Source: an uncultured Acidobacteriaceae bacterium
Lineage (GTDB): Bacteria; Acidobacteriota; Terriglobia; Terriglobales; Acidobacteriaceae
NCBI GenBank assembly: GCA_903904755.1
Contig: CAIVDV010000040.1
Span: forward strand, 122,528-186,527
Direction: 5' to 3'
Length of the DNA: 64,000 nucleotides
Positions 20,207-60,276 of this stretch are shown in pieces. The notes below the pieces were generated by a model. It had not been told where the DNA came from. It saw only the letters and a program-made list of their open reading frames with translations, and did no database searches. The position numbers and the translations under genes were made by a program. Every line of letters begins with the position of its first letter. Position 1 is the first letter of the stretch.

Positions 20207-20211
20207 AAAAT

Positions 20212-20247: not shown

Positions 20248-20250
20248 TCC

Positions 20251-20523: not shown

Positions 20524-20927
20524 TTGTCGACACTTCTGCCATCATCGCAATCCTCCGCAAGGAGCCGGAAGCCCTCTCCTTTTCACGCATTATCCAGGGC
20601 GCCCTTCAACCCCGAATCTCATCCGCTTCCTACCTGGAAGTCTCGATTCTCTGCGACAACCGCCGGCAATTCGATCTCTCTGCCGAACTTGACAGCTTAT
20701 TTGCTGAAATCGACTTCCTGATTGAACCTGTCACGCACGAACAGGCAAATATTGCCCGCACCGCCTACCGGCGCTATGGCAAAGGCTCAGGCCACCTGGC
20801 CAACCTGAACTTTGGTGACTGCTTCGTATACGCCCTCGCAATGGATAAAAATGAGCCTCTCCTTTTCAAAGGCGACGACTTTGTGCACACTGACCTGAAG
20901 TCCGCCACTCCCACACAAAACCTCTGA
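20520..20927 (+). CDS. vapC: VapC-type PIN-domain ribonuclease toxin
   Basis: 135 residues. The PIN-domain acidic residues are all visible: Asp4 in MIVDTSAIIAIL, Glu in SASYLEVSI near 41, Asp in NFGDCFVYALA near 99, and Asp in FKGDDFVHTDL near 118. These coordinate the metal for RNA cleavage. The ATGA overlap with vapB makes a classical coupled toxin-antitoxin pair. The codon use of the pair is less C-ending than that of the neighbours, consistent with acquisition by transfer. Confidence 0.93.
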   Translation: MIVDTSAIIAILRKEPEALSFSRIIQGALQPRISSASYLEVSILCDNRRQFDLSAELDSLFAEIDFLIEPVTHEQANIARTAYRRYGKGSGHLANLNFGDCFVYALAMDKNEPLLFKGDDFVHTDLKSATPTQNL

Positions 20928-22892: not shown

Positions 22893-24095
22893 ATGCACCC
22901 CATCGCCCGCTTCATCTCCCCGCTCTCCCTCGCCCTTGTTCTCGCCACCGCTGCCGCCCAGGTACCCGCCCCCGCCCCTCCCCAATCCCCCCGCTTCCAA
23001 ATGCCCCCACCCACCCCCAATGACACCCTCACCTCCGTCGAGCTCTCCCCTGACCATCACGTCACCTTCCGCCTTTGGGCCCCCTCCGCAACCGCCGTCA
23101 AGCTCCAGGCCGAGGGCCCCGAAGCCACCCCCGGCATCACCCCCGACCAGCTCAATGCCTACAACGGCGGTGTCCCCATGACCAAAGGCGACCAGGGCAT
23201 CTGGCAGGCCACCATCGGCCCTATCGCTCCCGGCGCCTATCGCTACAACTTCCTTGTCGACGGCGTTGTCACCGTCGACCCCAAAAATCCCCTCACCTCC
23301 CAGGCCCTCGCCCAGTCCCGCAGCCTCTATGAGGTGCCCGGCGCTCCCTTTGACGAATACTCCCCCGACATACCCCACGGCGCCATCGCGACGGTCCTCT
23401 ACAACTCCTCTGTCACCCAATCCCAGCGCCGCATGACCATCTACACCCCGCCCGGATACGAAGCCGGCTCCTCCCGCCTCCCTGTCCTCTATCTGCTCCA
23501 CGGTGGCGGCGACTCCGACAACTCCTGGCCCACCGTCGGCCGCGCCGGAGCCATCCTCGACAACCTCATCGCCGCCGGCAAGGCCCGCCCCATGATTGTC
23601 GTCATGCCCGCCGGCCACCTCTCCACCAGCTTCCGCCTCACCCCCGGCACCTCCATGGGCCACGACGAGTTCAACGACGACCTCGTCTCCGTCGTCCTCC
23701 CCTACATTGACGCCCACTACCGCACCCTCGCCGACCGCTCGCACCGCGCCATCGCCGGCCTCTCCATGGGCGGTCTGCAAACCCTCACCATCGCCCTCAA
23801 CCACCCCGACAAATTTGCCTCCGTCGGCGTCTTCAGCTCCGGCTGGTTCCCTGACTCCCTCAAGGAAGCCGAAGACAAGGACATCGCCGCCTACCGCGCT
23901 GCCGGCAAATCCTACAAGCTCTTCTGGGTCGGCGTCGGCCAGTACGACATCGCCCTCGCAAACTGCCACGCCTCCGTCGAACTCCTCAAAAAGGCCGGCA
24001 TCCAGCTCGAATACCACGAATCCCCCGGCTATCACGCCTGGAACAACTGGCGCGACTACCTCGCCCTCTTCGCCCCCAAACTCTTCCTCCACTGA
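22893..24095 (+). CDS. Secreted esterase, E-set (CBM48-like) plus esterase D domain
   Basis: 400 residues. A signal peptide (LSLALVLATAAAQ) comes first. An immunoglobulin-like E-set domain (~45-130) opens SVELSPDHHVTFRLWAPSATAVKL. The alpha/beta hydrolase domain (~160-400) shows LPVLYLLHGGGDSDNSW with the oxyanion segment, nucleophile elbow GLSMGG near 290, and a probable His in PGYHAWNNW near 378. The architecture matches feruloyl/acetyl-xylan esterases of family CE1 and enterobactin-esterase-like proteins; a role in plant polysaccharide breakdown is inference. It is a single gene. Confidence 0.87.
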   Translation: MHPIARFISPLSLALVLATAAAQVPAPAPPQSPRFQMPPPTPNDTLTSVELSPDHHVTFRLWAPSATAVKLQAEGPEATPGITPDQLNAYNGGVPMTKGDQGIWQATIGPIAPGAYRYNFLVDGVVTVDPKNPLTSQALAQSRSLYEVPGAPFDEYSPDIPHGAIATVLYNSSVTQSQRRMTIYTPPGYEAGSSRLPVLYLLHGGGDSDNSWPTVGRAGAILDNLIAAGKARPMIVVMPAGHLSTSFRLTPGTSMGHDEFNDDLVSVVLPYIDAHYRTLADRSHRAIAGLSMGGLQTLTIALNHPDKFASVGVFSSGWFPDSLKEAEDKDIAAYRAAGKSYKLFWVGVGQYDIALANCHASVELLKKAGIQLEYHESPGYHAWNNWRDYLALFAPKLFLH

Positions 24096-24113
24096 TTTGC
24101 ATTTCCTGAAAGC

Positions 24114-24147
24114 ACAAGGGGCGCGGAATCCCTTCCGCGCCCCTTGT
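24114..24147. terminator. Perfect 14-bp hairpin between convergent genes
   Basis: The ACAAGGGGCGCGGA and TCCGCGCCCCTTGT arms are perfectly paired around a 6-nt loop, between the esterase and SRPBCC stops. It is probably a bidirectional terminator; neither side has a long T-run. Confidence 0.7.
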
Positions 24148-24162
24148 ACTCACTACCCGGTC

Positions 24163-24618
24163 CTACTTGTACCGCATCAGGATTATCTCCCCGGTCTCCA
24201 GCCAGCTCTTCAAATTCGACAGAATTTGAGGCCAGCCGTTGGATACTGCACCGATAAATTGAGTTCCGTCTCCTTCCATCCAGTGCCTCACCGTCAGCTT
24301 CACTGTCTCTCCAAATGGCTCCAAGTCCATCGAGCATCGGGTATATCCCTCAGCCTTGTACTCTTCCTTCCACTCGTTTCGCCATCGCAACACCAACCGA
24401 TTTGGCGCATCAAATTCAAGCACCTCGCCGGAATCCATCACCTGCCCATCCCGGCTCACCAGGCTCCAGGCCCCGCCCGCCTTCTGCTCGGGCGTTGACC
24501 GCATCCCGTACCAATACACCACGGTCTCTTCCGGATTCGTTAGAGCCTCCCACAACCGCTCCACCGTAGTCCGGATATACGTCACGTACACAAACTCACT
24601 TCGCTCTGTCGTTGTCAT
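24163..24618 (-). CDS. SRPBCC/AHSA1 (START-like) family protein
   Basis: 151 residues with the AHSA1 pattern: FVYVTYIRTTVERLWEALTNPE, WYGMRSTPEQKAGGAWSLV, GEVLEFDAPNRLVLRW, and a C-terminal amphipathic helix GWPQILSNLKSWLETGE. The fold forms a hydrophobic ligand pocket; the ligand is unknown. Its start overlaps the 3' end of the ArsR regulator by 23 bp, a very common pairing in which the regulator controls the pair. A second, reverse-ordered pair occurs at 49.5 kb. Confidence 0.9.
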   Translation of the reverse strand: MTTTERSEFVYVTYIRTTVERLWEALTNPEETVVYWYGMRSTPEQKAGGAWSLVSRDGQVMDSGEVLEFDAPNRLVLRWRNEWKEEYKAEGYTRCSMDLEPFGETVKLTVRHWMEGDGTQFIGAVSNGWPQILSNLKSWLETGEIILMRYK

Positions 24619-24940
24619 CTTCTGCCTCCAGTCTGTTTTTCAATTCCGCCAGCCCATCCAGGCGCCCGCGTTCAAATTTCTCAATCCACCGTCTCCCGAT
24701 CGCATCAATAGGAACCGGGTTCAGAAAGTGCAGCTTCTCTCGCCCGCTACGTCGCCACCACACCAGATCCGCACCTTCCAGAATCCTCAGGTGCTTTGTT
24801 ACCGCCTGCCGGCTCATTCCAAGCCCTTCCGTAAGTTCCAGCAGCGTCTGCCCACCACGCGCAAACAATCGATCCAGCAGCATTCTCCTGCTGCCATCGG
24901 CAAGTGCCTTGAATACCCGGTCTTCCCGTTCCCCTTCCAT
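24596..24940 (-). CDS. ArsR-family winged-helix regulator paired with SRPBCC protein
   Basis: 114 residues from the ATG at MEGEREDRVFKAL, with AGGAAAGG upstream; the ORF track runs 32 residues further back. The winged helix shows FKALADGSRRMLLDRLFARG, the recognition helix MSRQAVTKHLRILEGADLV and a wing WWRRSGREKLHFLNP. The metal-site CxC of arsenic sensors is absent, so it belongs to the metal-independent SRPBCC-associated group. It probably regulates itself and the overlapping SRPBCC gene. Confidence 0.9.
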   Translation of the reverse strand: MEGEREDRVFKALADGSRRMLLDRLFARGGQTLLELTEGLGMSRQAVTKHLRILEGADLVWWRRSGREKLHFLNPVPIDAIGRRWIEKFERGRLDGLAELKNRLEAEDDNDRAK

Positions 24941-25036
24941 TTCAGCCTTTCCTTGCCAACATCCACACAATAAGCAACCAAATGATTGCCTGTCAACGGA
25001 AATCCTCTGTTTTTTTTCTTCATATCCCAAACGCAC

Positions 25037-25066
25037 AAAAGGCGCGGACCTCAGCCCGCGCCTTTT
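25037..25066 (-). terminator. Terminator downstream of the beta-barrel gene
   Basis: AAAAGGCGCGG/CCGCGCCTTTT hairpin, 19 bp after the stop of the minus-strand outer-membrane-like gene; the A-run on the plus strand gives the U-run of the minus transcript. Confidence 0.75.
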
Positions 25067-25084
25067 ATCTGTCCCCGCAAATGC

Positions 25085-25828
25085 CTACTGCTTGCCGAAC
25101 CGAATCACCAAACCCGCCGTCACGCCCAGGTTGTTCTGGATCGTCGAGCCAAAGTTCGTCAGCACATACTCTGGTGTCACCCGCAGCGAAGCCGTCGGCG
25201 TCAGGTTCACTTCCACCGGCACGCCGGCGCTCAACGCCATTCCTGCGCCATCCGGATACAATCCCAGCTCGCCCGCCGTATAGCCGCCCGTATCGCCCAG
25301 GAAGTTGCCATACGCGCCGCCCGCCAGCACCCGGCCGCTCACGCTCCACCGCGGCTCCAGCACAAACCGGTAGCTTGGCCCCGCCATCAGCATGTACTGG
25401 CTGATTGCGGGCTTCACCTTGTCATACTGGTTGTTCCCGAGGTAAGCCGTCCCGTAATTCCCGCGCGCATCCACCACCACTGACGTATTCCGGCTGAAGT
25501 ACCGCGAAACGCTCACGTCCCACAGATACTCGTTCAGCTTCTGCAGCCCGCCCGTCCCGCCCGTAGCTCCCGGCCCCGGCGTAAACCGCAGAAATCCAGA
25601 CCCAAAATTCAGATCGTACAAATTGTCATAGGTGTCATGAATCGCTGCCGCACGGCGCTTCGCTCGCCGCTCCCGCACACGCGCCTGCACACTCGCTGCG
25701 CCGCTTCCCGGCTGGCTCGCAGTCGCCTGCGGTACACCCTCTGAGCTGCTGCTCGTCTGGGCACTCATACCCAGTGTTGTTGTCACGGCAAAAAATACCA
25801 GCATTGCGGCACGGCGGTGGAAAGACAT
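25085..25828 (-). CDS. Outer-membrane beta-barrel-like protein
   Basis: 247 residues. A signal peptide (RRAAMLVFFAVTTTLGMSAQ) precedes a low-complexity Ser/Gln stretch (~25-55). The rest alternates polar and hydrophobic residues as in an eight-strand barrel: TGGLQKLNEYLWDVSVSRYF, TSVVVDARGNYGTAYLGN, YMLMAGPSYRFVLEPRWSVSG, and a final strand GVTAGLVIRFGKQ. Ending in an aromatic-rich strand is typical of OmpW/OmpA-like barrels. The function is unknown. The start choice is uncertain: GGAGG lies 13 bases before this ATG and 1 base before a TTG 12 bp upstream. Confidence 0.8.
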   Translation of the reverse strand: MSFHRRAAMLVFFAVTTTLGMSAQTSSSSEGVPQATASQPGSGAASVQARVRERRAKRRAAAIHDTYDNLYDLNFGSGFLRFTPGPGATGGTGGLQKLNEYLWDVSVSRYFSRNTSVVVDARGNYGTAYLGNNQYDKVKPAISQYMLMAGPSYRFVLEPRWSVSGRVLAGGAYGNFLGDTGGYTAGELGLYPDGAGMALSAGVPVEVNLTPTASLRVTPEYVLTNFGSTIQNNLGVTAGLVIRFGKQ

Positions 25829-26027
25829 CGGTTTTGACAAGCCTCCAGAACGTTCAGGAAACGCGCACTCTCGGCAACGGCCCTCTAGGTATTAAAACAC
25901 CTCTGGCCACCGCCCTGCCCTGCCCGGCACACGATTCCACCCGCATCCCCCAGCAAAGCCACGTTTTCCCCTCATCTCTCTCAGACGCGCCACAACCCGT
26001 TTCGTCCCACAACCCAGCACACCGGGT

Positions 26028-26060
26028 GCCGCCGGTCCCTCGCTATTGGGGACCGGGGAA
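26028..26060 (+). repeat. REP-like hairpin, GGTCT/AGACC family, divergent copy
   Basis: GTGCCG then CCGGTCCC pairs with GGGGACCGG around TCGCTATT. It keeps the GGGTGCC lead and GGACCGGGG end of the family. It lies between the 3' end of one minus-strand gene and the promoter region of the next. Confidence 0.55.
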
Positions 26061-26081
26061 ACACAGCCCAGGCTGACCGCC

Positions 26082-26852
26082 CTAATGTATCTTCGCCAAA
26101 TCCGCCTTCAACTGCGTCAAATCAAACCCCGCCGGCGAACCCTGCTTCTCCAGCCAGTCCGCGCTCAGCATCACATGCGCCTCGTCCACATACTTGTGCC
26201 AGAAGGCCGGCGTCATCTTCTGCAGCACCCCCCAGGTAATGCACGTAAACCCCTCCGCGTCATACGCCGGCACAAACACCCCATGCCCGCCCCAGCTCCC
26301 CGCAACCGTATCCGCGCTCTCCGGCGTCACCAAATCCCACGGCTGCCCAGCAACAATCTGCGGACTCGCCGTATTCGGCAGGTTCACCCCAACATACACT
26401 CCGCCAAACAGCAGAATCGCCTGCCGTATCTCCTCCAGATTTCCCACCGCCGGGTCAGCAAACGCCAGCAGCTTGTGCCCCGCAAACTCGCTCTTCTTCC
26501 AAAGCTGCATCACCGTCAGTTCGGCACCCCCCTTGTCCGTGCTCTCGTCACCCGCCTTGTACCCGCCCCACTTCTCGTAGTAGCTCAGCACCACATCATC
26601 CGGCACCGTCACCTCGCCCGTCGTGTTCGCTGACCACACCTGAATCGCGTGGCCCAGCCCCGCAATCGTGCAATCATGCAGATCCCGGTTCAGCATCATC
26701 CCCCACTCCGTAATACCCTTGGTCCAGTCCACCTTCGGCGGCGCAGGAGGCAGCTGCTTCATATACTTCTCCAGCTTCAGCGTCCGACTGTCCGTCTTGA
26801 TCGTCTTGCGGCCCAGCTTCATAGCTCCATGGTGCAGTGGGGGATGCGGCAT
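26082..26852 (-). CDS. Papain-like cysteine protease-like protein (candidate)
   Basis: 256 residues from MPHPPLHHGAMK; other possible starts are the ATGs for MQAPTRKG (51 bp upstream) and MKLGRKT (27 bp downstream). NRDLHDCTIAGLGHAI (Cys near 61) resembles the Cys-containing helix of papain-fold proteins, and SWGGHGVFVPAYD (His near 185) resembles the His motif with a following CITWG in place of the usual N-S-W-G. The classical Q-G-x-C-G-S-C-W is not present, so catalysis is unproven. There is no signal peptide. The protein is otherwise unrecognised; it stands alone on the minus strand. Confidence 0.6.
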   Translation of the reverse strand: MPHPPLHHGAMKLGRKTIKTDSRTLKLEKYMKQLPPAPPKVDWTKGITEWGMMLNRDLHDCTIAGLGHAIQVWSANTTGEVTVPDDVVLSYYEKWGGYKAGDESTDKGGAELTVMQLWKKSEFAGHKLLAFADPAVGNLEEIRQAILLFGGVYVGVNLPNTASPQIVAGQPWDLVTPESADTVAGSWGGHGVFVPAYDAEGFTCITWGVLQKMTPAFWHKYVDEAHVMLSADWLEKQGSPAGFDLTQLKADLAKIH

Positions 26853-27028
26853 TGTGCTCTCAGTCTCCTCGTTCTCCCCGCCCTTCCGGGTGGGTGCCTG
26901 CATACTATCGACTTTCCCGCCCGCTGCAAAGCAGTTTCTTCCCGCCCTCCATGACGGAAATATCACCCCCCACCCACCCCAAGCACCCCCTCCCCTGCGT
27001 ATCATTGACCAACGGAGGTTTCACCCAA

Positions 27029-27628
27029 ATGGTCCGCATCTTCCTCGGATTCGTCCTCGGTCTCCTCATTCTCCCCATCGTGGCCTTTGTCTACATCCAC
27101 CACGGCCACCCGCCCGTCGCCGTCGCTGACCAGCCCTTCCCCATGGAGCGCCAAATCGCGCACGCGGTCCTCAACCAGCGCATTGACGCCGAGGCCCCCG
27201 CCAAGGCCCTCGCCGAAGCCAATGAGGCCACCTTCATCGCCGGCGCGCACATCTACCGCGAGCAGTGCGCCTTCTGCCACGGCCTCAGCGGACAGCCCTC
27301 CAACGTCGGCAAAAACATCTTCCCGGACGCTCCTCCCCTCTGGGAAAAGCACCACCATGGCGATGTCGTCGGCGTCAGCGATGACCCCCCGGGAGAAACC
27401 TACTGGAAAGTCGCCAACGGCATCCGCCTCACCGGCATGCCCGCCTACAAGTCCTTCCTGACGGAAACCCAGATGTGGCAGGTCACCATCCTCCTCGCCA
27501 ATGCCGACAAGCCTCTGCCCCCCGCGGCCCTGGCCATCCTCAAGGAACCCCTGTCGCTCGACATTCCGACTGCCGCCATCCCAACCGCTCCCTCGGCTGT
27601 GAAGCCGGCCAAGCCCGCGGCCAAATAG
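27029..27628 (+). CDS. Membrane-anchored cytochrome c (single heme)
   Basis: 199 residues from the ATG preceded by GGAGG; the ORF track extends 64 residues upstream without support. An N-terminal membrane anchor (IFLGFVLGLLILPIVAFVYI) is followed by a single heme-binding motif CAFCH near 81-85, a probable axial Met in TGMPAYKSF near 138, and a Pro/Ala-rich tail (~170-199). It is a periplasm-facing electron carrier similar to cytochrome c553-type domains. No oxidase or reductase gene is adjacent, so its partners are unknown. Confidence 0.88.
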   Translation: MVRIFLGFVLGLLILPIVAFVYIHHGHPPVAVADQPFPMERQIAHAVLNQRIDAEAPAKALAEANEATFIAGAHIYREQCAFCHGLSGQPSNVGKNIFPDAPPLWEKHHHGDVVGVSDDPPGETYWKVANGIRLTGMPAYKSFLTETQMWQVTILLANADKPLPPAALAILKEPLSLDIPTAAIPTAPSAVKPAKPAAK

Positions 27629-27728
27629 TCCCCGCACCAACCCTGCTCCACTTTCCCCGCCTGGCCAGACTGCCCTTCCGGTAATCTGGTCAGGCATTTA
27701 CTTTTTCCCTACAAGCGAGCCACTCATC

Positions 27729-28226
27729 ATGCGCCTTCTTCCCCGCCTCACCCTTGCCGCCATCCTCTGCCTCCCCACCCTCGCCCTCCACGCCCAGGCT
27801 CCCGCAGCCACTCCTACCCTCTCCGGCGACCCGGCCCACCCCGACGCCACCCAGGGATGGGTCTCCACCCAGCTCTTCTTCGGCCTCGGCCTCTACCAGC
27901 CCGCCAACACCCAGCCCCCTCCCGCCCCCGCCCCCGCCACCAAACCAGCCCGCAAAGGCGTCACCGAAGTCCAGTGGCTCAGCTTCCTCGACCACGAGGT
28001 CACCCCCCGCTTCCCCTACGGCCTCAGCGTACAGGACATCTACGGCCAGTGGCAGGGCAAGCAGCAGGGCCAGCCCGTCCGCCTCCGCTCCAAGGTCCTC
28101 ATCATCGTCTACGCCAACACCCCGGAAAATCAGGCCGCCATCGAAGCCATCCGCACCGCCTGGAAGCGCATCACCGGCGACCAGTCCGTTCTCAAAGTCA
28201 CCACCCCGGCCGACGTCTCCTTCTAG
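27729..28226 (+). CDS. DUF3574 family secreted protein
   Basis: 165 residues with a clear signal peptide (LAAILCLPTLALHAQ). The mature part opens WVSTQLFFGLGLYQP, then has a Pro-rich insert, EVQWLSFLDHEVTPRFPYGLSV and YGQWQGKQQGQP, and ends DQSVLKVTTPADVSF. This order of motifs matches DUF3574. The family's role is unknown. A 42-residue ORF follows 56 bp later. Confidence 0.85.
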   Translation: MRLLPRLTLAAILCLPTLALHAQAPAATPTLSGDPAHPDATQGWVSTQLFFGLGLYQPANTQPPPAPAPATKPARKGVTEVQWLSFLDHEVTPRFPYGLSVQDIYGQWQGKQQGQPVRLRSKVLIIVYANTPENQAAIEAIRTAWKRITGDQSVLKVTTPADVSF

Positions 28227-28282
28227 CCGCCCCCCGCCCGTGCCATACTGAATCCATCCCATCTCCGCACAAGGACCACCCA

Positions 28283-28411
28283 ATGAGCATCCTCTCCGGC
28301 GTAAAAAAGGTCTTCAAAATCTTCCTCATGAGCCTCGGCGCCTCCAGCTACGACAAAAAACCCGCGCCCCCCAAGTCCGCACCCGCCAAACCCCAGCCTC
28401 CCGCCAAATAA
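28283..28411 (+). CDS. Small hypothetical protein, 42 residues
   Basis: Too short for the track as its own entry; it is the tail of an ORF that shadows DUF3574. MSILSGVKKVFKIFLMSLG is a basic amphipathic or short membrane helix, and the rest is a Lys/Pro/Ala tail (KKPAPPKSAPAKPQPPAK). AAGGACC sits 8 bases before the ATG. The amphipathic helix suggests membrane association. No family is recognised. Coding status rests on the ribosome site and on the spacing after DUF3574. Confidence 0.5.
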   Translation: MSILSGVKKVFKIFLMSLGASSYDKKPAPPKSAPAKPQPPAK

Positions 28412-28484
28412 CTTTTCACCCCCGCCAAACTCCATCCCGCCCCCAGCTCTCCCTCTTGAGCCGCTGACCCGCTAAAATAGATCC

Positions 28485-29531
28485 ATGCCGATCTCCCGCC
28501 AGCAGGCCCTCGACTACTTCCACTCCGACGACCTCATCGGCCTTGGCATGGATGCCGACGCCGTCCGTCGCCGCCTCCATCCCGAGGGCGTGGTCACCTA
28601 CATCATCGATCGCAACATCAACTACACCAACTTCTGCACAGAGTACTGCACCTTCTGCGCCTTCTACCGCCCCCTCAAGGGACCCCAGGCCAAAGAGGGC
28701 TACATCCTCGACCGCGAAACCATCTACGAGAAAATCGCCGAAACCCGGGACCTCGGCGGCACCGGCGTGCTCATGCAGGGCGGCATCCATCCCGACCTCA
28801 AAATCGACTGGTTTGAGAGCCTCTTCACCGGCATCAAGCAGCGCTTCCCCAACATCTGGCTCCACTGCCTCTCCGCCTCTGAAATCCTCGCCATCGCCGA
28901 GTACTCTGAAATCTCCCTGCGCGAAACCATCGCCCGCCTCCGCGACGCCGGCCTCGACTCCATCCCCGGCGGCGGCGCTGAAATCCTCGACGACGACGTC
29001 CGCAAGCGCATCGCCCGCCTCAAGTGCCGCACCCAGGACTGGCTCGACGTCCACCGCACCGCTCACGAACTCGGCATGAGAACCACCGCCACCATGATGT
29101 TCGGCGTCGGCGAAACCTTTGATCAGCGCATCAACCACTTCGAAGTCGTCCGCCAACTCCAGGAAGAAACCGGCGGCTTCACCGCCTTCATCCCCTGGAG
29201 CTTCCAGCCCCACAACACCGCCCTCGGCGGCCGCGGCTGGGACGAAGCCACCTCCGTCGAGTACCTCAAGACCCTCGCCATCAGCCGCCTCTACCTCGAC
29301 AACATCGAAAACGTGCAGGCCAGCTGGGTCACACAGGGCCTCAAAGTCCTCGAAGTCGCCCTCAACTTCGGCGGCAACGACGTCGGCTCCGTCATGCTCG
29401 AAGAGAACGTCGTCAAAGCCGCTGGCACTTCCAACTGCACCACCGAAGAGGAACTACGCCGCATCATCCGCGATGCCGGCTTCAAACCCGTCCAGCGCGA
29501 CACCCTCTACCGCACCATGTTCCTCAACTAA
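28485..29531 (+). CDS. mqnC: Cyclic dehypoxanthinyl futalosine synthase MqnC
   Basis: 348 residues. The radical-SAM cysteines are at 51, 55 and 58 in NFCTEYCTFCAFYR, the arrangement of MqnC/MqnE-type enzymes. GVLMQGGIHPDL, SIPGGGAEIL, TATMMFGVGET and FIPWSFQPHNT are family motifs. The length is normal for MqnC. The enzyme cyclises dehypoxanthine futalosine in the futalosine route to menaquinone. No other mqn gene is in the window, so the pathway genes are dispersed. Confidence 0.93.
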   Translation: MPISRQQALDYFHSDDLIGLGMDADAVRRRLHPEGVVTYIIDRNINYTNFCTEYCTFCAFYRPLKGPQAKEGYILDRETIYEKIAETRDLGGTGVLMQGGIHPDLKIDWFESLFTGIKQRFPNIWLHCLSASEILAIAEYSEISLRETIARLRDAGLDSIPGGGAEILDDDVRKRIARLKCRTQDWLDVHRTAHELGMRTTATMMFGVGETFDQRINHFEVVRQLQEETGGFTAFIPWSFQPHNTALGGRGWDEATSVEYLKTLAISRLYLDNIENVQASWVTQGLKVLEVALNFGGNDVGSVMLEENVVKAAGTSNCTTEEELRRIIRDAGFKPVQRDTLYRTMFLN

Positions 29532-29564
29532 TTCCGGCCCCCCTTCAAATTCCCACAAACCTCC

Positions 29565-29596
29565 GGGTGCCCCAGGTCTCGCTTCTGAGACCGGGG
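29565..29596 (+). repeat. REP-like hairpin, GGTCT/AGACC family, copy 4
   Basis: GGGTGCCCC lead, then AGGTCTC/GAGACC around GCTTCT. It has the same orientation as the other copies and lies 34 bp after mqnC. Confidence 0.65.
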
Positions 29597-29644
29597 ACGG
29601 ACCACTTCCTCGACCTGACTTCTCCGACATCAACCAAACTCCGG

Positions 29645-29692
29645 GTTCCCCATCCCTTCCAAAGCCCCACCTTGGAATGTGTGGGAGGCACA
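29645..29692 (+). repeat. REP-like imperfect hairpin with AGCCCCAC loop, copy 2
   Basis: TTCCCCATCCCTTCCAA pairs imperfectly with TTGGAATGTGTGGGAGGCA around AGCCCCAC, the same loop as the 14.68 kb copy. Confidence 0.6.
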
Positions 29693-29722
29693 ACTCACGC
29701 GTCCTCACCGCCCCAACTCCCC

Positions 29723-29738
29723 ATCGAGCGCAGCTCGA
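29723..29738. repeat. Palindrome ATCGAGCGCAGCTCGA
   Basis: Same sequence as the 3.13 kb element apart from the final T. A shorter related core (GAGCGCAGCTC) occurs just beyond the far end of the ORF that follows. Confidence 0.6.
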
Positions 29739-29854
29739 CCTCCCGGTACCTTTAAAAAGGAATCTGCGAAGGTTAACTCACCCGATTCCGTCGCAGCTTG
29801 AGTGAAATGCAAATAGGCAAGACCGCCCGGCTCCGGCTTATTCCTGGGACCGAG

Positions 29855-29860
29855 TATAAT
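29855..29860 (+). promoter_or_regulatory. Consensus -10 box TATAAT
   Basis: A perfect TATAAT, 51 bp before the GTG start of the unrecognised ORF. There is no good -35 at 16-18 bp spacing (TCCGGC lies at 17), so it may need an activator. Perfect -10 hexamers are rare in this GC-rich window. Confidence 0.5.
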
Positions 29861-29910
29861 GCCTCTTAAATTGCAAGCTGTACAGATCTTTGTTCCAGCA
29901 AGGATTCACC

Positions 29911-31410
29911 GTGCAGGCCTACTGCCTCCCGCTTCACAAGGTCGTTCTTCAAAACCTCTATAGTACAAAGTGCGGCTGGTCGAAATCGCTCTGTCACGGT
30001 TACTCGATCGCTCAGGCCCGATCCGATGTGTTTTTCTCCCTGCTCTTCGGCGGTCAGATTTGTGCCTCAGCCGGGGCTTTCTTCGATTCCCCGATCGCCC
30101 TGCGTGTCATCGGAGAGCTATCTTCCCACCCCCTTTTTCTTAACTCCTGCCGTTTGTATGGTTGGCGTCCACTGGCCCTTAACACTGACATGCTGGTGAA
30201 CAACAGCACCGATCCCAATCCGATCGATTACATCGTCAGCCGATGGCGTAATCCGAAGACTACATTTGGATTCTTTCGAGATGGAGAGCCCGGTTTCGAA
30301 GATTTGGAGGCTACACGCCCAATAAAACTCTTGGCCTGCATGAGCTTGGAGAAAGGGCATTTCGAGAACCTTGAGCATCAGTTCGAAACGCTCTATAAGG
30401 ACCACCATACTGACCTCTTCGACCCAGATTGGGAGCGGCATCAGGCCGAAGGGTTCGCCTCCCCTCGGCCTGCCACGACGCCAGCAATACTCACCCCCGA
30501 TACATGGATCTGGCTGAAGGCGATCCTTGGTTATATCCATGAATTCCAGATGATGAAGCACCGCAATAGTGCGGAGCACCCTGAGGTTTTGGATTCCTTC
30601 AGGCCAATGCAAGCCATTATCGAGCGCACGGCCACCATGTGGAAAGATACGCCAAACTATAAAAAAGAAGAGCTAGAGGGACTCAATCGGGAGTTCCTCG
30701 GGCGCATTGGCAATCCAGTCGCGATGAACCCGATTCACAACGAAGCACCTTCACACTACGGGCATTACTATCCGCTGATCGCTTACTGGATGGAAACCGA
30801 GTGGCACCAGGTGCGCCAACGCACCTATGGTGCCAAAACCTGCATCCTTTCCTCTGACTGGATGATTCGAGAAGTGCAGGATTTCGATGAGCTTTCCAAG
30901 GCAACCTATCTTCGCGATGAGCGCGTCGATGATTCGCTGCGAATGGCTCAAGAGCAGTTTGGAGAAATAAGCTGGGATCTCTTGTTTGAGGTGGTGAGCA
31001 ATCCACGCTGGCGTTCACTCGTGCAATCAATGCACGACCCCACCGCGACCACCAAACAGGAAGCCATTGGAGAAGAAATTCTCGGTCTCCTGGCTGCATC
31101 GTTTGGTCAATTCCACATCACAAATGAAAAGGGGTTTGTCCATTGCGCGGTGAAAAAGACTGCATTGGCTTCAAGTTTGCTCGCCTACACCGGATTGGCG
31201 TCTGACTTCTGCGGCTCACTGCACGGAGCACTGGGCCTGCCACAAAGCATGGCGCCCCTCTCTTCAGGTGGCATCTCGCATGCTTTCCTGGCTGCGGCAC
31301 CCTTGCTTGGAGCCTTTGGGCACCTGCTGAAAGGGACAAAGCACATCTATGTCCCTTTCAAAGAGCGGCAGTTGCGGCGGGTGATCGTGCCTGATATTTA
31401 TGGTGCCTGA
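29911..31410 (+). CDS. Unrecognised 499-residue protein with atypical codon use
   Basis: I do not recognise this protein. The start is set at GTG (MQAYCLPLHKVV) because AAGGA lies six bases before it; the track's TTG is 21 bp upstream. The protein looks mixed alpha/beta and mostly soluble, rich in Trp, His and Cys, with features such as RSDVFFSLLFGGQICA near 40-60, HYGHYYPLIAYWMETEWH near 285 and LRDERVDDSLRMAQEQFGEI near 340. Two hydrophobic stretches lie near the C-terminus (ALASSLLAYTGLASDF, AFLAAAPLLGAFGHLL). Codons mix T-, A- and G-ending types, unlike the C-ending neighbours, and the gene lies between palindromic repeats. Acquisition by transfer is likely; a defence or toxin role is only a guess. 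Confidence 0.75.
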   Translation: MQAYCLPLHKVVLQNLYSTKCGWSKSLCHGYSIAQARSDVFFSLLFGGQICASAGAFFDSPIALRVIGELSSHPLFLNSCRLYGWRPLALNTDMLVNNSTDPNPIDYIVSRWRNPKTTFGFFRDGEPGFEDLEATRPIKLLACMSLEKGHFENLEHQFETLYKDHHTDLFDPDWERHQAEGFASPRPATTPAILTPDTWIWLKAILGYIHEFQMMKHRNSAEHPEVLDSFRPMQAIIERTATMWKDTPNYKKEELEGLNREFLGRIGNPVAMNPIHNEAPSHYGHYYPLIAYWMETEWHQVRQRTYGAKTCILSSDWMIREVQDFDELSKATYLRDERVDDSLRMAQEQFGEISWDLLFEVVSNPRWRSLVQSMHDPTATTKQEAIGEEILGLLAASFGQFHITNEKGFVHCAVKKTALASSLLAYTGLASDFCGSLHGALGLPQSMAPLSSGGISHAFLAAAPLLGAFGHLLKGTKHIYVPFKERQLRRVIVPDIYGA

Positions 31411-31472
31411 CACACGTAGCACATGCTCCGCGCGCCCAGAGATTCCCCACCCTCATCCCATCAATCCCCACA

Positions 31473-31483
31473 GAGCGCAGCTC
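31473..31483. repeat. Short copy of the GAGC-GCA-GCTC palindrome
   Basis: GAGCGCAGCTC in a CCCCACA..CACCCC context, 63 bp after the unrecognised ORF and partner to the copy before it. Confidence 0.4.
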
Positions 31484-31488
31484 ACCCC

Positions 31489-34137
31489 CTACTCCCACCC
31501 CCCCGACGCCACAAACCCCGCCCAATACCACGGCTGCGTACTCTGCCCCGCCGCACGCCGCTCCGCCAGCACCACCCTTGCCGCCAGCCACGCTGCCTCC
31601 GCCGCGCTTCGGTGCAGTTGCAGATGCTCCCGGTACAGCGCCCGCACATACTTCCGCGTCGCCTCATCCTCCACCGGCCACAGCGCCATCACAATCGACC
31701 GCGCCCCGGCAATGCGAAACGCCCGCTGCAGCCCCAGAACGCCTTCGTTGTCGCTCAACTCCCCGTTCCCCGTATTGCATCCCGAAAGCACCGCCCACTC
31801 CACCCCATGCAGATTCAGAGACGCAATCTGCTGCGCCGTCAGAATCGCGTCCTTCCGCCCGCTGTTCGCGCCCGCAAACACCAGCCCCGAATTCAGCAGC
31901 GGATTCCCGTTCCCGCAACTCTTGTTCAGCAGAAACGTATGCGTGGCAACGTGCAGCACCCGCGCATGCTCCGTCGCCCGCACAAATGCCTCAGCCGTCG
32001 CCGCCTGCCCCGTCAACACCGCCACCGCCTCACTCCCCTCCCAACGCTTCCACTCCGACGACAAATCCGTTGCCTCCTGCGCCGCCCCCGGCAGCAGCGG
32101 AAAGCGAACATTTTTCAAATCCTCACACGTCGCCGCCCCGCCCCGCAGTGTTGAGCCGGCCGCAGCAATCTCCTTGTCATCAAATGCCGGCCCACCCAAC
32201 ACCATCAGCCCGGCCTTCTTGGCAGCCGGCGCACTCGGCAACAAATCCCGCTCGCTTGAAAGCACATGCACCACCGGCCCCTTCTCCACCAGATAGCCGT
32301 CCCCCTCCGGCAAACTCGCAAACGGAACCAGATTCAGCAGCCTGTCCGGCACCACCATCACGATTCGCGCGCCCTTCCGCGCCTCAGCCAATGGATCCCA
32401 AATCGCCTTCCGCAGCTGCAGGCCCGCCTCCCGGTATGCCCGCTCATTCTGTGTCGAGCCCAGCCCCCCACTACTGGATTCCCGGTCTACACTCTTCCGC
32501 ATCGCCAGAACCAGTTCATCCACCGGCTTCAACGGCCCCAGATCAACCACCTGCACTTTCTCCCCGTCGCGGCGCATCACAAATGCTATGTAGCTGGTAG
32601 TAAACGTCCGCGCCGGGTCCACCTTGTCCACCACCGTTTTCGCATACGCCAAGTACGAAACCAGCACAGCTCCCGGCGGCAAACTGGCGCGCAACTCCTT
32701 CACCGTTGCCGCGTCCTGTCGCTCATCGGCCCGCACCGCCGCACTGTGCTCGGCCAGTTGCCGCTCAATCTTCTCCATCTGCGCATTCGCCGTCGCCAGC
32801 ACCTTGCTCTTGTCCTTCGTACCGGGTTTTATCCCGTCTGCTTCCAGAACCTGATTCCGCGCATGGTTCAGCGCCTCCAGCAGCCGCCCCACCTCCGGGT
32901 CGTGCGAAGCGTTCAGGTTTCGCTGCCGCCGCGCCATCTCATCGGCCACCAGCGCCCGCGACCGAATCACCTCATGGTACGTTTCGTCGACGGCCATCTC
33001 CGGATGCTTTGCCAGCACCGAAAGTGCAACGTTCAGCCCCATCGGCCGCCGCTTGAAATACTCCAAAGCCTGCCGCTCCGGCAATATACGAGCCTGTAAA
33101 ACAACCTTCTCGCGCCCCAGCCGCGAAGCCGTAAGCCCTTCCGCAACCGCACGCTGCAACTCGCCACCCGAAGCCAGCGAACGCGCATACCCAAAGTGGT
33201 CCCACGCCAGTGAATCCGAATTCAGCAGTGGATTCGCCAGGGCTAGCCGATAGTCATTCCATGCTGACTCAAACTCGCCCGTACGCGTATACAACTCCGC
33301 CAAGTTCGCTTGAATATTGGCCAGCAGCGAACTCTCCGGCCCATTGGCCCGCGTAATCAGCTCAACTGCGTTGTTGTAGTGCTCAATGGCCTTGGGCAAA
33401 TCCTGCGCCCACATATACTGCGTCGCAGTATCACTTTCCACAGTGCCAAGCAGAACATCGTCAACCTTCGCACTGCGGGCAATCTCCAGCGCCTCCTGTT
33501 GATCCGCGAGCGCACCCGTCTGGTCATGGACAAGGTACTTCAGCTGGGCCCGGTCGCTCAGCGATTCAATCACCAGCCCTTCGTTACCGGCCCTGCTCTT
33601 TTTGCCTGCATCCACCGCTTTCGTGGAGACCCTCAAGCCCACGGCATAATCGCCCAGAGACCGGCAAAGCTGCGCCAGCGTGTTCACCGCATACAGATAC
33701 GTCCCCGAATCAGGAAAACGCTTCTCGGCCGCTTCCATTGCCTGCTCTGCAAGTGGTCGCCCCTCTGCGGCCCGGTCCAACCTATCCAGAACCCGCGCAG
33801 CGTCCGTCAACGCTTCCAGCCACAATTCGCTTTCTTTCCCGGCTACCGCCTCGGAAACTGCCATCTCCCGGTGCGCGCTGTCCAGCGTCTCGGCGGTCGC
33901 CTCTTCCTCATCCACCTCAGCCTGAATCATCGCATGCAGCGCTCGAGCCACCTCCGCCGAGTTACCAGGATGCGCAACTTCCGCCGCTTTCACCGCCGCC
34001 GCTGCAACAACCGTCTTGCTGGCCGACGCTGCCCCCGGCTGCTGCGCCTCCGCCGGTCGCCCACCGGCAATCATCGCCGTCACTGCAACCAGCGCCAATC
34101 CAAATACCTGGACCTGTATTCTTGCTCGTATGCTCAT
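31489..34137 (-). CDS. Exported TPR-CHAT (caspase-like) protease
   Basis: 882 residues. A signal peptide (FGLALVAVTAMIAGGRPAEA) comes first. Helical TPR-like repeats fill ~40-450 (for example LLANIQANLAELYTRTGEF, LVIESLSDRAQLKYLVHDQ). The CHAT domain covers ~560-882, with the catalytic His near 731 in HVATHTF and the Cys near 787 in VLSGCNTGNGEL; the end LPWYWAGFV-like pattern is present as QPWYWAGFVASGG. CHAT is a caspase-like cysteine protease fold; TPRs usually sense partners. An exported form would act in the periplasm. It is the third gene of a same-strand set after a Sel1 protein and an MscS-like channel (139-bp gap). Confidence 0.88.
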   Translation of the reverse strand: MSIRARIQVQVFGLALVAVTAMIAGGRPAEAQQPGAASASKTVVAAAAVKAAEVAHPGNSAEVARALHAMIQAEVDEEEATAETLDSAHREMAVSEAVAGKESELWLEALTDAARVLDRLDRAAEGRPLAEQAMEAAEKRFPDSGTYLYAVNTLAQLCRSLGDYAVGLRVSTKAVDAGKKSRAGNEGLVIESLSDRAQLKYLVHDQTGALADQQEALEIARSAKVDDVLLGTVESDTATQYMWAQDLPKAIEHYNNAVELITRANGPESSLLANIQANLAELYTRTGEFESAWNDYRLALANPLLNSDSLAWDHFGYARSLASGGELQRAVAEGLTASRLGREKVVLQARILPERQALEYFKRRPMGLNVALSVLAKHPEMAVDETYHEVIRSRALVADEMARRQRNLNASHDPEVGRLLEALNHARNQVLEADGIKPGTKDKSKVLATANAQMEKIERQLAEHSAAVRADERQDAATVKELRASLPPGAVLVSYLAYAKTVVDKVDPARTFTTSYIAFVMRRDGEKVQVVDLGPLKPVDELVLAMRKSVDRESSSGGLGSTQNERAYREAGLQLRKAIWDPLAEARKGARIVMVVPDRLLNLVPFASLPEGDGYLVEKGPVVHVLSSERDLLPSAPAAKKAGLMVLGGPAFDDKEIAAAGSTLRGGAATCEDLKNVRFPLLPGAAQEATDLSSEWKRWEGSEAVAVLTGQAATAEAFVRATEHARVLHVATHTFLLNKSCGNGNPLLNSGLVFAGANSGRKDAILTAQQIASLNLHGVEWAVLSGCNTGNGELSDNEGVLGLQRAFRIAGARSIVMALWPVEDEATRKYVRALYREHLQLHRSAAEAAWLAARVVLAERRAAGQSTQPWYWAGFVASGGWE

Positions 34138-34276
34138 GCTCTAAGTCACGCCTTCACTCACAGGAGTCTGACAGAAGAAACTCCCCCAAGGCAATGGTCA
34201 CTGGGAACTCATCCTCTTTCGGGCAAGTGGCTCCTCGCAAGCTGGCAACTATCCCCAGCCAGCCCCGCCGGACCCC

Positions 34277-36100
34277 CTACTCTCCCTCCCCTGCCTTCCC
34301 CTCCTGCTGCAAGTCAATCGCCCGCTGATACAGCCGGTTCCGCACCCCAAACCGCTCTGAAGCCCGGGTCACATACCGCACATGCACCTCAATCCCAGCC
34401 CCCGCTGGCCGCAGATTCACGGTCGGCGCAGCGCTGAACAGGCTCAATCCGTCATCCCGCGAACCCCGCTTCCACTCCTGCTCCGCCACCTGCGTACTCT
34501 CCGCCGTCTCCTCCTCCACCGCCTCCCGTATCCGCTCCACCACCTCATGCATCTTCTCCGACGAGGGAATCGTCACCCGTACCTCATCCCACATCCACTG
34601 CCCTTCCGTAGAGAAGTTGAAGTATTGCCCACGAATGGCAAAGTTGTTCAGGAACGTAATCCGCCGCCCCGTCGGGTGCCCCTTCTCGGCCAGCGCCCCA
34701 GTCTCCAGCAGCGTCGTGCTCATCAGCCCGATATCGGTTACCTCGCCACCCACCCCGTTGATCTCCACCCAGTCGCCCACCCGAATTCCATTCCGCCCCA
34801 TCAGCACAAACCACCCAAAAAACGCCAGAATAAAGTCCTGCAGCGCAATCGTCAGCCCCGCCGTGGACAACCCCAGCACCGTGCTCATCTGCCTCGGCCA
34901 CCCAAACACCACCAGCAATATCAGCAGCCCGCCCACCAGTTGTATCGCCAGCCGAAGCACGGAGTGCAGCGTCCGCATCTGCCGCCTGTCCAGACCCGGC
35001 CTCCCCATCACATGCCGTACCAGCCCGTCGCACAGTACCACGCAAATCAGCAGAAACGCAATCACGCCTACCGACCGCAGCATCAGGTGTAGCAAAATCC
35101 GCCGCTGCAGCACCAGTTGCGCCCCCCACTTCCCATACTCCGCCGCCAGCTTCTCCTCGGTCTCTATCCGGTCGTTCAAAATGCTCTGCAGTTGCCGCTC
35201 CAGCCCGCGCGCCTTCAAATTCGCCAGCTTCGATTGCCCACCCTCACCAGCCGCCGCCGCGCCCGCCTTCTGCCCCACCTCGCTCTGCTTTGCTTTCAGC
35301 TCCGCAATATCCGCCTCTGCCTGCTGCTGCGCTTGCCGAATCAGCCCAGACCGCTCCATCAGACCCTGCCACGCCTGAACCCTGCTCGCCAGCGTCCCTT
35401 TCTGCTTGGCAGACTCCACCGCCACTTCGCCCGCCCCATGCAGGCCGCTGTCATACTTGCTCATCAGCGCCTCGTGCGCCGCCAACTCCCCCTGGATCTG
35501 CGAAGCGTTGTCGCCCGACACCCGGTCCAGTTCCTCCCGCGCATCTGTCAACTGGTCGCTGTCCAGCCCCAATTGCGCCTTCGCAACCTCCAGATCATCG
35601 CCGCCCTCCGCCGCCTTCGCCGTCCCTGCCTTCGGAGTCAACCGGTCCAACTCTGCCTGGTCTTCCTTCACCAGCTCCGCCAGTTGGTCCACCCGCTGCG
35701 ACAGCGCAATCGCAGGCCCCGTCAAATTCACCTGCTGCACCTGTGCAGCCGCCTGCCGCAGCGCAAACGCAAACGCCTGGTCCACCTCGTGGTCCGCCAG
35801 CCGCTCCGCCTCGCGGGCATGCTCCTTCTCTTCCACCGTCACAGCCAGCCCAGCCAGCGCCTCCGCCGTCTGCCACGGACGCAGATCCACCAGCGTCTTC
35901 TGCGCCCCCGACAAACTCTGCCCACTTGCCCGGGCCCGAAGAAACGGCAAATTCGCCATTGCATCCCGCGTCGTCCACGTCAATGCCAGGCACGCCCCCA
36001 GCACCCCCACCAGTACCGCCAGCAGAATCACACTTGCCGGGCTGAACAGGCGTTTCTTCGCCACTGCATCGGAAATCGGGGGAGAGGGAATCTTTGCCAT
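34277..36100 (-). CDS. MscS-family mechanosensitive channel with long periplasmic coiled coil
   Basis: 607 residues. A first membrane helix lies near 20-42 (VILLAVLVGVLGACLALTW). A long Ala/Glu/Gln-rich coiled coil (~65-325) follows, then three further helices (~335-440). The MscS pore/beta domain is recognisable by TVLGLSTAGLTIALQDFILAFFG-type pore helix and GDWVEINGVGGEVTDIGLMSTTL. It is built like the larger MscK/YbiO/YnaI group rather than small MscS. It releases ions on membrane tension. It is flanked by Sel1 and CHAT genes on the same strand. Confidence 0.9.
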   Translation of the reverse strand: MAKIPSPPISDAVAKKRLFSPASVILLAVLVGVLGACLALTWTTRDAMANLPFLRARASGQSLSGAQKTLVDLRPWQTAEALAGLAVTVEEKEHAREAERLADHEVDQAFAFALRQAAAQVQQVNLTGPAIALSQRVDQLAELVKEDQAELDRLTPKAGTAKAAEGGDDLEVAKAQLGLDSDQLTDAREELDRVSGDNASQIQGELAAHEALMSKYDSGLHGAGEVAVESAKQKGTLASRVQAWQGLMERSGLIRQAQQQAEADIAELKAKQSEVGQKAGAAAAGEGGQSKLANLKARGLERQLQSILNDRIETEEKLAAEYGKWGAQLVLQRRILLHLMLRSVGVIAFLLICVVLCDGLVRHVMGRPGLDRRQMRTLHSVLRLAIQLVGGLLILLVVFGWPRQMSTVLGLSTAGLTIALQDFILAFFGWFVLMGRNGIRVGDWVEINGVGGEVTDIGLMSTTLLETGALAEKGHPTGRRITFLNNFAIRGQYFNFSTEGQWMWDEVRVTIPSSEKMHEVVERIREAVEEETAESTQVAEQEWKRGSRDDGLSLFSAAPTVNLRPAGAGIEVHVRYVTRASERFGVRNRLYQRAIDLQQEGKAGEGE

Positions 36101-36200
36101 GCCTCCATCCTCGCAGGTCTGCCGCGTTCCTTCGGTTCAAATAAGGTCAATCCCGGCCTCTGTCACCAGCCCACAGATTCCCAGCGACAACGGAATCCCC

Positions 36201-36980
36201 CTACTTCTGGCGCTCCCCCAGCCACTTCGCAGCCCGCGCCTTGGCCACCGCCAAATCCGCCGCCGCCAGCCGAGCCCCCACACTGTCCCGCGCCTTCGTG
36301 GCCTCCTGCTGCCGCGCCCCTGCCGAGGAGCCAGCGGCAATATCAAACCAGAAATACGCCTCAACATAGTCCTTCGCAACCCCCTGGCCAGACACATACA
36401 TCGCGCCAAGGTTGTATTGCGCCCGCGCCAGACCCTGTTCGGCCGCCTTCCGGTACCACCCTGCCGCCTGAGCATAATCCTGCTCAACACCTGTTCCGTT
36501 GTCGTACAGCAGCGCCAGGTTAAACTGCGCAGCGGCATTGCCCCGCCCCGCCGCTCTGCGATACAAATCCAGCGCCTGCGTCGCATCCTGCGGCACACCC
36601 AGCCCACGCTCGTACAGTGAACCCAGGTTAAACTCCGCCTCTGAGACTCCCTGCAGCGCCGCCTTCCGATACCACCCCGCAGCCTGTGCGTAGTTCTGCG
36701 TTACCCCCACACCCTTGTCATACATCAAGCCAAGATTCAACTCCGCCTGGGCATTGCCCTGCGCCGCAGCCTTCCCGAACCACAGCACCGCCTTCGCATC
36801 ATCTGCCTCAACCCCATTGCCCTGCGAGTACGCCACCCCCACCAGGTATTGCGACTGCGCATCCCCGCCATCCGCCTTCGCCTGCAAGGCCGCATCCATC
36901 CCCTTCCCCTGCGCCAATACGACAGTTCCCATCAACACAATCACAGCAACACAAACCATCCACCCAAAGCGCGCCTTCAT
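36201..36980 (-). CDS. Secreted Sel1-repeat protein
   Basis: 259 residues. A signal peptide (WMVCVAVIVLMGTVVLAQG) precedes about five 36-residue Sel1-like repeats (YLVGVAYSQGNGVEADDAKA, LNLGLMYDKGVGVTQNYAQA, FNLGSLYERGLGVPQDATQA, FNLALLYDNGTGVEQDYAQA, YNLGAMYVSGQGVAKDYVEA). Such solenoids act as adaptors in periplasmic or cell-surface complexes. The gene comes first in the minus-strand series Sel1-MscS-CHAT, with a 100-bp gap before the channel. Its partner is unknown. Confidence 0.92.
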   Translation of the reverse strand: MKARFGWMVCVAVIVLMGTVVLAQGKGMDAALQAKADGGDAQSQYLVGVAYSQGNGVEADDAKAVLWFGKAAAQGNAQAELNLGLMYDKGVGVTQNYAQAAGWYRKAALQGVSEAEFNLGSLYERGLGVPQDATQALDLYRRAAGRGNAAAQFNLALLYDNGTGVEQDYAQAAGWYRKAAEQGLARAQYNLGAMYVSGQGVAKDYVEAYFWFDIAAGSSAGARQQEATKARDSVGARLAAADLAVAKARAAKWLGERQK

Positions 36981-37144
36981 CTACCCCTCCAAAACTCAAT
37001 CAACAGACTAATCCTCCTGCCCGCCATCCGTTTGTCTCCACCGTCACACTCCCCACGGCACCTGCCCAAACCACCTGGCCGAAATAACAATCTTTTGATA
37101 TTTCCTGTTATTCCGGCGCATCCTCAAGGGCACTGGAAAACCCC

Positions 37145-37404
37145 ATGAAGGTCTCGCTTACCCCTGAACTCGAGCAGTTCGTCGCAGCCAAAGTCGATTC
37201 CGGCCGCTACACCTCCGCCAGCGAGGCCGTCCGCGAAACCCTCCGCCTCCTCGAAGATCAGGACCTCGACCGCCGAGCCCCCTCCCCGCATTCCAGCAGG
37301 AACTCGACGCCCGCATCGCCGCCCTCGACCGCGGCGAATATCTGACCCCGGAATCTCTTCGCGAGCGCATCCGTCAAAAATCCGCCCAGCGGCGCGCAAT
37401 CTAG
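37145..37404 (+). pseudogene. parD: ParD-family antitoxin, frameshifted and without a toxin
   Basis: The first ~42 residues read as a good ParD (MKVSLTPELEQFVAAKV, SASEAVRETLRLLEDQD). At about 37,275, in the C-rich run GAGCCCCCTCCCC, the frame is lost. The expected continuation (FQQELDARIAALDRGEYL to RIRQKSAQRRAI) appears in the frame one base back and ends at a TAG, consistent with a single-base deletion. No ParE/RelE gene follows; the next gene is on the other strand. It is either a decayed orphan antitoxin or a sequencing error in a homopolymer. Confidence 0.8.
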
Positions 37405-37409
37405 CTAGC

Positions 37410-38348
37410 CTACTTCCCCACCAACCCCCGCCCCCGCAGCCACGTCTCCAGCAGCCCCGGCCACTGGTCCAGCGACGGATTCCCCATCCCCAGCCCGCTC
37501 CCATGCTGCCCATGGGCAAAGATATGCATCTCCACCGGAACCCCGGCCCCCAGCAGCGCCTCGTAGTACTTCAGCGCCTGCTCCACCGGAACCACACTGT
37601 CATCGGTCGTGTGGTAGATAAACGTCGGCGGAGTATCCTTCGTCACAAACATGTCCGGCGAATATGCCTTCTGCAGCGCCTCGCACTGGTCCATCACATC
37701 GGCCAGTACGCAATACGTCAGGTGCGCCTTGTTCGTCGAAACCCCGCCAATCCACGGATACCCCAGCACTGCAAAATCCGGCCGGCTCGACTCCCGCTCA
37801 ATCGGGTCCTCCGCATCCGCCTTCCCCGCCACAAACTGCGTCGAGCTCAACCCCGCCAAATGCCCGCCCGCCGAGAACCCAATCACCCCAATCTGGTCCG
37901 CCTTCAGGTGATAATCCCGCGCACGCGCACGCACCAGTTGCACCGCCCGCCGCGCATCCACCAGCGGCACCGGCAGCAGATACTTCTTCCCCAGCCGGTA
38001 GTGCAGCACAAACGCCGTAAACCCACGGCTCGTAAACCAGTTCGCCACCTGCCGCCCTTCCAGGTTGCTGGCCTCCATCATGTACGCCCCACCCGGAAAC
38101 ACAATCACCGCCGACCCGTTCCCCTGGCCCTCCTGTGGCGGCAGCACCGTCAGCCACGGCACATCCTCGCACGCCGTTCCCTTCGCTCCCGGCGCATCTC
38201 CCGCCCACAGTCGAATCGTCGAAACCTGAAGAAAATCATTCTTCGCAGCCGCCTCCGGACACCCCGCCGCCGCGCCCTGGGCAACACCGATCCCCAAACC
38301 CAAAGCCAGCCCAAACGCCAGCACCGTCAATCCACGCCAAACTCTCAC
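37410..38348 (-). CDS. Secreted alpha/beta hydrolase (acetyl-xylan esterase/lipase-like)
   Basis: 312 residues. A signal peptide (LTVLAFGLALGLGIGVAQG) is followed by an oxyanion segment IVFPGGAYMMEA (in place of HGGG), nucleophile elbow GFSAGGHLAG near 160, acid in TTDDSVVPVEQ near 250, and His in FAHGQHGSGLG near 285. This is the order of BD-FAE/XynB-type acetyl-xylan esterases. It is likely periplasmic and active on acylated sugars, but the substrate is inferred. It stands alone between parD and bshC. Confidence 0.87.
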   Translation of the reverse strand: MRVWRGLTVLAFGLALGLGIGVAQGAAAGCPEAAAKNDFLQVSTIRLWAGDAPGAKGTACEDVPWLTVLPPQEGQGNGSAVIVFPGGAYMMEASNLEGRQVANWFTSRGFTAFVLHYRLGKKYLLPVPLVDARRAVQLVRARARDYHLKADQIGVIGFSAGGHLAGLSSTQFVAGKADAEDPIERESSRPDFAVLGYPWIGGVSTNKAHLTYCVLADVMDQCEALQKAYSPDMFVTKDTPPTFIYHTTDDSVVPVEQALKYYEALLGAGVPVEMHIFAHGQHGSGLGMGNPSLDQWPGLLETWLRGRGLVGK

Positions 38349-38410
38349 AGTGAGCCTCCAGCGCCGGTCGGCGCATCGGCCAAATCATACGGAAGCAGCC
38401 CATCCACTGG

Positions 38411-58590: not shown

Positions 58591-60276
<1,686 letters not shown>

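What the first reader, a model, noticed from the sequence alone, without database searches (positions are those of the whole stretch)
29911..31410. Unrecognised 499-residue ORF with foreign codon use, bracketed by matching palindromes
The gene uses T-, A- and G-ending codons freely, against the strong C-ending bias of its neighbours. It has a consensus TATAAT and a good ribosome site before a GTG start, so it is probably expressed. ATCGAGCGCAGCTCGA lies 170 bp before it and GAGCGCAGCTC 63 bp after, and two other REP-type hairpins sit on its left. The protein matches no family I know and has two hydrophobic C-terminal stretches. It is the best candidate in the window for a recently gained, undescribed function such as a single-gene defence or toxin protein; the role is a guess.
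Basis: partly seen in the sequence, partly recalled or inferred. Interest (0 to 1): 0.75.

Follow-up and report, generated by a model that had tools for sequence, protein, structure and literature searches.

The report
Recently acquired orphan gene, function unknown
A soil bacterium of the Acidobacteria carries a foreign-looking, single-gene insert encoding a 499-residue protein with no detectable relative in any collection searched; it sits at a chromosomal spot where its sister species carry different accessory genes or almost nothing, so it is probably recent cargo whose job is still unknown.

Summary
The ORF is real (GTG 29911, stop 31410, 499 aa, 56.6 kDa, Shine-Dalgarno AAGGA) and foreign in composition: GC 53.5% against 63%, flat third-position use, and GC skew -0.05, higher than in all 1,250 1.5-kb windows tested. 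A Markov scan puts the foreign segment at 29751-31410: promoter plus this gene alone. No curated family or solved structure matches. No convincing relative turned up in about 1,800 genomes, plasmids, phages or viral contigs. In six sister species mqnC is followed directly by the hydrolase gene of window 37410; the gap is 79 bp in one and holds other cargo in the rest, including a toxin-antitoxin pair. Recent gain in a variable site is supported. The palindromes belong to a dispersed repeat (41 exact copies in the genome against 2 for a control); the left one lies at the composition boundary, the right one about 60 bp beyond the gene; the segment missing in relatives is larger (7.9 kb). A defence or toxin role remains a guess: no motif, profile, fold or partner supports it. 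A weak lead to the actinomycete telomere protein Tap does not survive correction for the number of families searched. An ORFan cargo gene, cleanly documented, of modest interest.

The parts
29911..31410 (+). orphan gene, GTG start, 499 aa, 56.6 kDa, pI 6.2
29900..29904 (+). Shine-Dalgarno AAGGA, 6 nt before the GTG
29855..29860 (+). TATAAT, possible -10 element; no -35 match
29751..31410 (.). segment of foreign composition (left edge 29723-29798, right edge 31399-31445)
   Evidence: Markov log-odds segment, score 100.7
29726..29736 (+). left palindrome core GAGCGCAGCTC, inside ATCGAGCGCAGCTCGA; member of a dispersed repeat
31473..31483 (+). right palindrome core GAGCGCAGCTC, without the ATC/GAT extensions
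28485..29531 (+). mqnC-like radical SAM gene, conserved left flank of the variable site
   Evidence: Radical_SAM and CofH_C; orthologue in congeners
29532..37409 (.). whole segment absent from the syntenic site in six congeners
31489..34137 (-). TPR-CHAT protein, host-like composition, inside the variable segment
   Evidence: no syntenic copy in congeners
34277..36100 (-). MscS-type mechanosensitive channel, host-like composition
36201..36980 (-). Sel1-repeat protein, host-like composition
37410..38348 (-). alpha/beta hydrolase, conserved right flank of the variable site

Best explanation
The finding is a recently gained, self-contained one-gene insert (about 1.66 kb: leader with TATAAT, ribosome site, one 499-codon gene) placed in a variable site between mqnC and a convergent hydrolase gene. 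It encodes a probably soluble 56.6-kDa accessory protein that works alone, since no partner gene shares its strand, operon or composition. Foreign composition and variable site are shown. Expression is inferred from the signals. The biochemical role is not shown; the most likely class, from the company such sites keep, is a stand-alone effector of the defence or toxin type (I give that role about 0.25 on its own). Entry through recombination between copies of the dispersed palindromic repeat is possible but only inferred.
For: Foreign GC, codon use and skew limited to 29751-31410. Absent from all 14 other genomes of the genus and from several hundred Acidobacteriota genomes. Six congeners show mqnC followed by the hydrolase gene with 79-2,578 bp between them, none of it related to the orphan. 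Cargo there differs by species: a Gp49/HI1420 addiction pair in G011, a proteasome-like protein in G001; a truncated ParD lies at about 37145-37290 of the window. No library matched.
Against: No homologue, motif, fold or partner supports an effector role. Both AlphaFold models were unusable (pLDDT 36 and 34). Parts of the same genome have near-zero skew, so the skew alone could come from a move within the genome, though the low GC would still need explaining. Expression is untested. Without relatives, selection on the protein cannot be measured.
Confidence: 0.6

Rival explanations
1. The protein descends from a replication protein of a mobile element: residues 73-125 match the C-terminal region of Tap, the telomere-associated protein of actinomycete linear replicons, so the gene would be a remnant or re-used piece of such a protein.
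For: NCBIfam Tap (NF047542) E=0.028, residues 76-141; a genome search in Actinomycetota also brought up a Tap gene beside a Tpg-like gene (L167, E=0.0023 for one genome); a profile of 11 Tap relatives scores the protein above 3,000 shuffles.
Against: E-values are marginal once about 88,000 models in four libraries and 327 genomes are counted; a noise hit of E=0.039 to an unrelated family appeared for Tap itself. 413 plasmids carry a Tap relative, yet none matched the orphan at E<=10. Only about 50 of 499 residues align, and the orphan starts too late to hold the rest of Tap.
Confidence: 0.08
2. A household or metabolic gene of an unsampled soil lineage that arrived by chance and is drifting, with no role under selection here.
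For: No relative found at all; the low adaptation to host codon use fits a young arrival; the frame could be intact simply because it is recent.
Against: The frame is intact over 499 codons with a good ribosome site, and leader and gene share the foreign composition. No known household family matches.
Confidence: 0.25
3. The palindromes are the ends of a small mobile element that carried the gene.
For: 19-bp direct repeat, 89% identical, 1,747 bp apart; the left compositional edge 29723-29798 includes the palindrome, the right edge lies about 30-75 bp short of it.
Against: The repeat has 41 exact copies in the genome, dispersed over many contigs in similar C-rich context; congeners lack the enrichment; the segment missing in congeners extends 6 kb further right; no transposase or integrase was recognised in the segment.
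Confidence: 0.12

Closest known systems
ORFan cargo genes at variable chromosomal sites between conserved genes
   Same: Foreign composition, one species only, conserved flanks, different cargo or none in sister species
   Different: No integrase, tRNA or other mobility gene is seen in the segment; the foreign part is a single gene
Telomere-associated protein Tap of Streptomyces (NCBIfam NF047542)
   Same: About 50 residues align (P-x-A-x3-D, then P/N-P-x-D)
   Different: Marginal score, no helix-turn-helix match or Tpg partner, only a tenth of the protein aligned
REP-type dispersed palindromic repeats
   Same: Short palindromes in many copies, apparently mostly between genes
   Different: The motif is enriched only in this genome of the genus; no associated transposase was looked for genome-wide

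Membership tests
Known anti-phage defence protein | match to a PADLOC model | tested here: not met
   none at E<=10; defence families described after 2023 are not in that library
Known anti-phage defence protein | neighbouring defence genes | tested here: inconclusive
   Pfam on ten neighbours shows none typical of defence apart from a TPR-CHAT protein on the other strand; PADLOC was not run on neighbours
HEPN ribonuclease toxin | Rx4-6H motif in a HEPN domain | tested here: inconclusive
   RNSAEH at residue 218, but 24% of shuffles hold such a motif; no Pfam HEPN match
Tap telomere-associated protein | score above the family cut-off (600 bits) | tested here: not met
   13.1 bits
Tap telomere-associated protein | adjacent tpg gene | tested here: not met
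   next gene is a convergent TPR-CHAT gene
Phage-derived protein | match to a PHROG or to a phage genome | tested here: not met
Recent insertion at a variable site | flanks adjacent in a relative lacking the gene | tested here: met
   79-bp gap in G009; 609-2,578 bp of other sequence in five more congeners
Recent insertion at a variable site | composition unlike the surroundings | tested here: met

The most novel reading that the evidence does not exclude
The gene founds a new protein family that acts alone as an anti-phage or anti-competitor effector, carried as a promoter-plus-gene module that moves between chromosomes through dispersed palindromic repeats.
Probability: 0.1. Interest if true: 0.65.

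Novelty: new member of a known kind. Interest (0 to 1): 0.35.

Why it matters
Variable spots between conserved genes are where many single-gene defence systems and toxins were first found, and a 499-residue protein with no detectable relative is a fair candidate for a new activity. What is shown so far is that it is foreign-looking, intact and confined to one species of those searched, which is common among ORFan genes; its value depends on an experiment or on finding relatives.

Tried and rejected
Weak genome hits in Acidobacteriota (L002-L012, L047, L048) were aligned and rejected as chance: short, in other frames, or with stops. L168 (also a weak hit) looks like a metal-type P-type ATPase by inspection of its sequence; L169-L171 were not opened. 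The HEPN-like motif is at chance level. A made-up degenerate alignment (P0001 plus five synthetic variants, alignment A1, used only to widen search patterns) found nothing in viral contigs. Three searches failed because locus ids were not accepted as centres. AlphaFold of the whole protein and of residues 1-175 gave no confident residue; no fold search was made on such models. Rfam: nothing at gathering score in 24000-40000; one chance plant-miRNA match below threshold. No tRNA in the window. Terminator-like sites listed by the scan lie inside the gene or on the other strand and were not used. Paper searches on ORFans and Acidobacteria islands gave nothing specific.

Full report
Observation. 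The ORF runs from GTG 29911 to the stop at 31410 (499 aa), with AAGGA six bases before the start. In 2,000 shuffles of the region the longest stop-free run was 330 codons, so the frame is not chance. Position-specific GC (0.57/0.42/0.61 over the slightly longer 506-codon frame) has the coding pattern.

Foreign composition. GC is 53.5% against 63.0% for the window. Its skew of -0.05 is above every one of 1,250 windows of 1.5 kb. A Markov comparison places the foreign segment at 29751-31410, with edges uncertain by tens of bases, and it is by far the strongest such segment in the window (score 100.7 against 25.3 for the next two; the model was trained on the orphan itself, so the score is descriptive and the edges are what matter). 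CHAT, MscS and Sel1 genes to the right follow the host pattern. Caveat: other contigs of the same genome have near-zero skew, so skew alone does not prove a foreign source; the low GC adds to it.

Empty site. mqnC is found in the genus, with full-length orthologues at 88-93% identity. In six congeners whose loci were read, mqnC is followed by the hydrolase gene that lies at 37410-38348 here, with 1,546, 609, 2,578, 1,026, 721 and 79 bp between the aligned parts. In two more (L042, L043) only mqnC aligned, and in L046 the fetched stretch ends about 3 kb after mqnC, so nothing can be said there. None of the fetched congener loci encodes a relative of the orphan. Cargo differs: a Gp49-like/HI1420-like addiction pair in G011 and a proteasome-like protein in G001. 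Here a truncated ParD reading frame is left near the right end. So the site is variable, and the segment missing from relatives is 29532 to about 37409, not the palindrome interval. I infer two steps: host-like genes first, the orphan later.

Palindromes. GAGCGCAGCTC occurs 41 times in the genome against 2 for the pattern read backwards, and 2-10 times in congeners, whose control counts are 0-9. Most of twenty other copies viewed share the wider form ATCGAGCGCAGCTCGAT or close to it, often after other hairpin-like sequence. It is thus a dispersed repeat enriched in this species. Two copies flanking one given gene is unusual for that gene, but across a genome with 41 copies about half a gene would be expected by rough reckoning (my estimate, assuming about 3,700 intergenic regions). 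The left copy is at the compositional edge; the right copy is a short form about 60 bp beyond the gene.

Homology. Pfam, PHROGs and PADLOC gave nothing at E<=10; NCBIfam gave Tap at 0.028; PDB nothing below 1. Six exact 8-residue patterns in 84,980 species genomes found no relative; this reaches close relatives only. Whole-genome protein searches covered 100 relatives, 396 of the phylum, 398 of the family (these sets overlap), 379 of the phylum of a Paraburkholderia, 327 of that of a Streptacidiphilus and 324 of a planctomycete's. Weak hits that were opened are chance, apart from a Tap gene. Plasmids and phages: one meaningless hit. Viral contigs: none. An empty answer in these collections is not proof that relatives do not exist; large metagenome collections could not be searched.

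Tap lead. Two searches pointed to the same stretch, residues about 73-125, of Tap proteins. A profile from 11 Tap relatives gives E=0.00025 for a single comparison, above 3,000 shuffles; hhalign gives probability 8%. Because the family was chosen among tens of thousands, I keep this at about 8%. A paper states that Tap has no DNA polymerase motif although it adds nucleotides to the terminal protein (PMC4513846).

Function. No partner, motif or fold is established. The reading that best fits the anatomy is a stand-alone accessory protein in a cargo site; the defence or toxin class is favoured only by the company such sites keep. Shown: real ORF, foreign composition, variable site, no detected relatives in what was searched. 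Inferred: expression, recent horizontal gain, effector role.

Noticed in passing
window 1-64000; L202-L216: Extreme regional strand asymmetry: GC skew about -0.33 throughout the window and about +/-0.25-0.34 in 9 of 15 other 20-kb samples of the genome, but weak or near zero (|skew| 0.02-0.15) in the other six. Most congeners have weaker skew at the same locus. Cause not examined.
   Followed up: partly
about 37145-37290: N-terminal part of a ParD antitoxin frame (Pfam E 1.3e-9 for 47 residues) at the right end of the variable segment, apparently a broken toxin-antitoxin module.
   Followed up: partly
L038 6191-7737: Congener G011 carries a Gp49-like toxin and an HI1420-like antitoxin at the same site.
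   Followed up: partly
L040 and L041, gap after mqnC: Two congeners share a similar 294-300-aa protein of no Pfam family at this site (Pfam was run on the L040 copy only).
   Followed up: no
20205-20900 and 60274-60670: Two further short segments score as orphan-like in composition (25.3 each).
   Followed up: no
L167, L192-L201: Tap proteins show stretches reminiscent of family-B polymerase palm motifs (for example GLDLNTAFL and a late D-containing strand); by eye only, Pfam finds nothing.
   Followed up: partly
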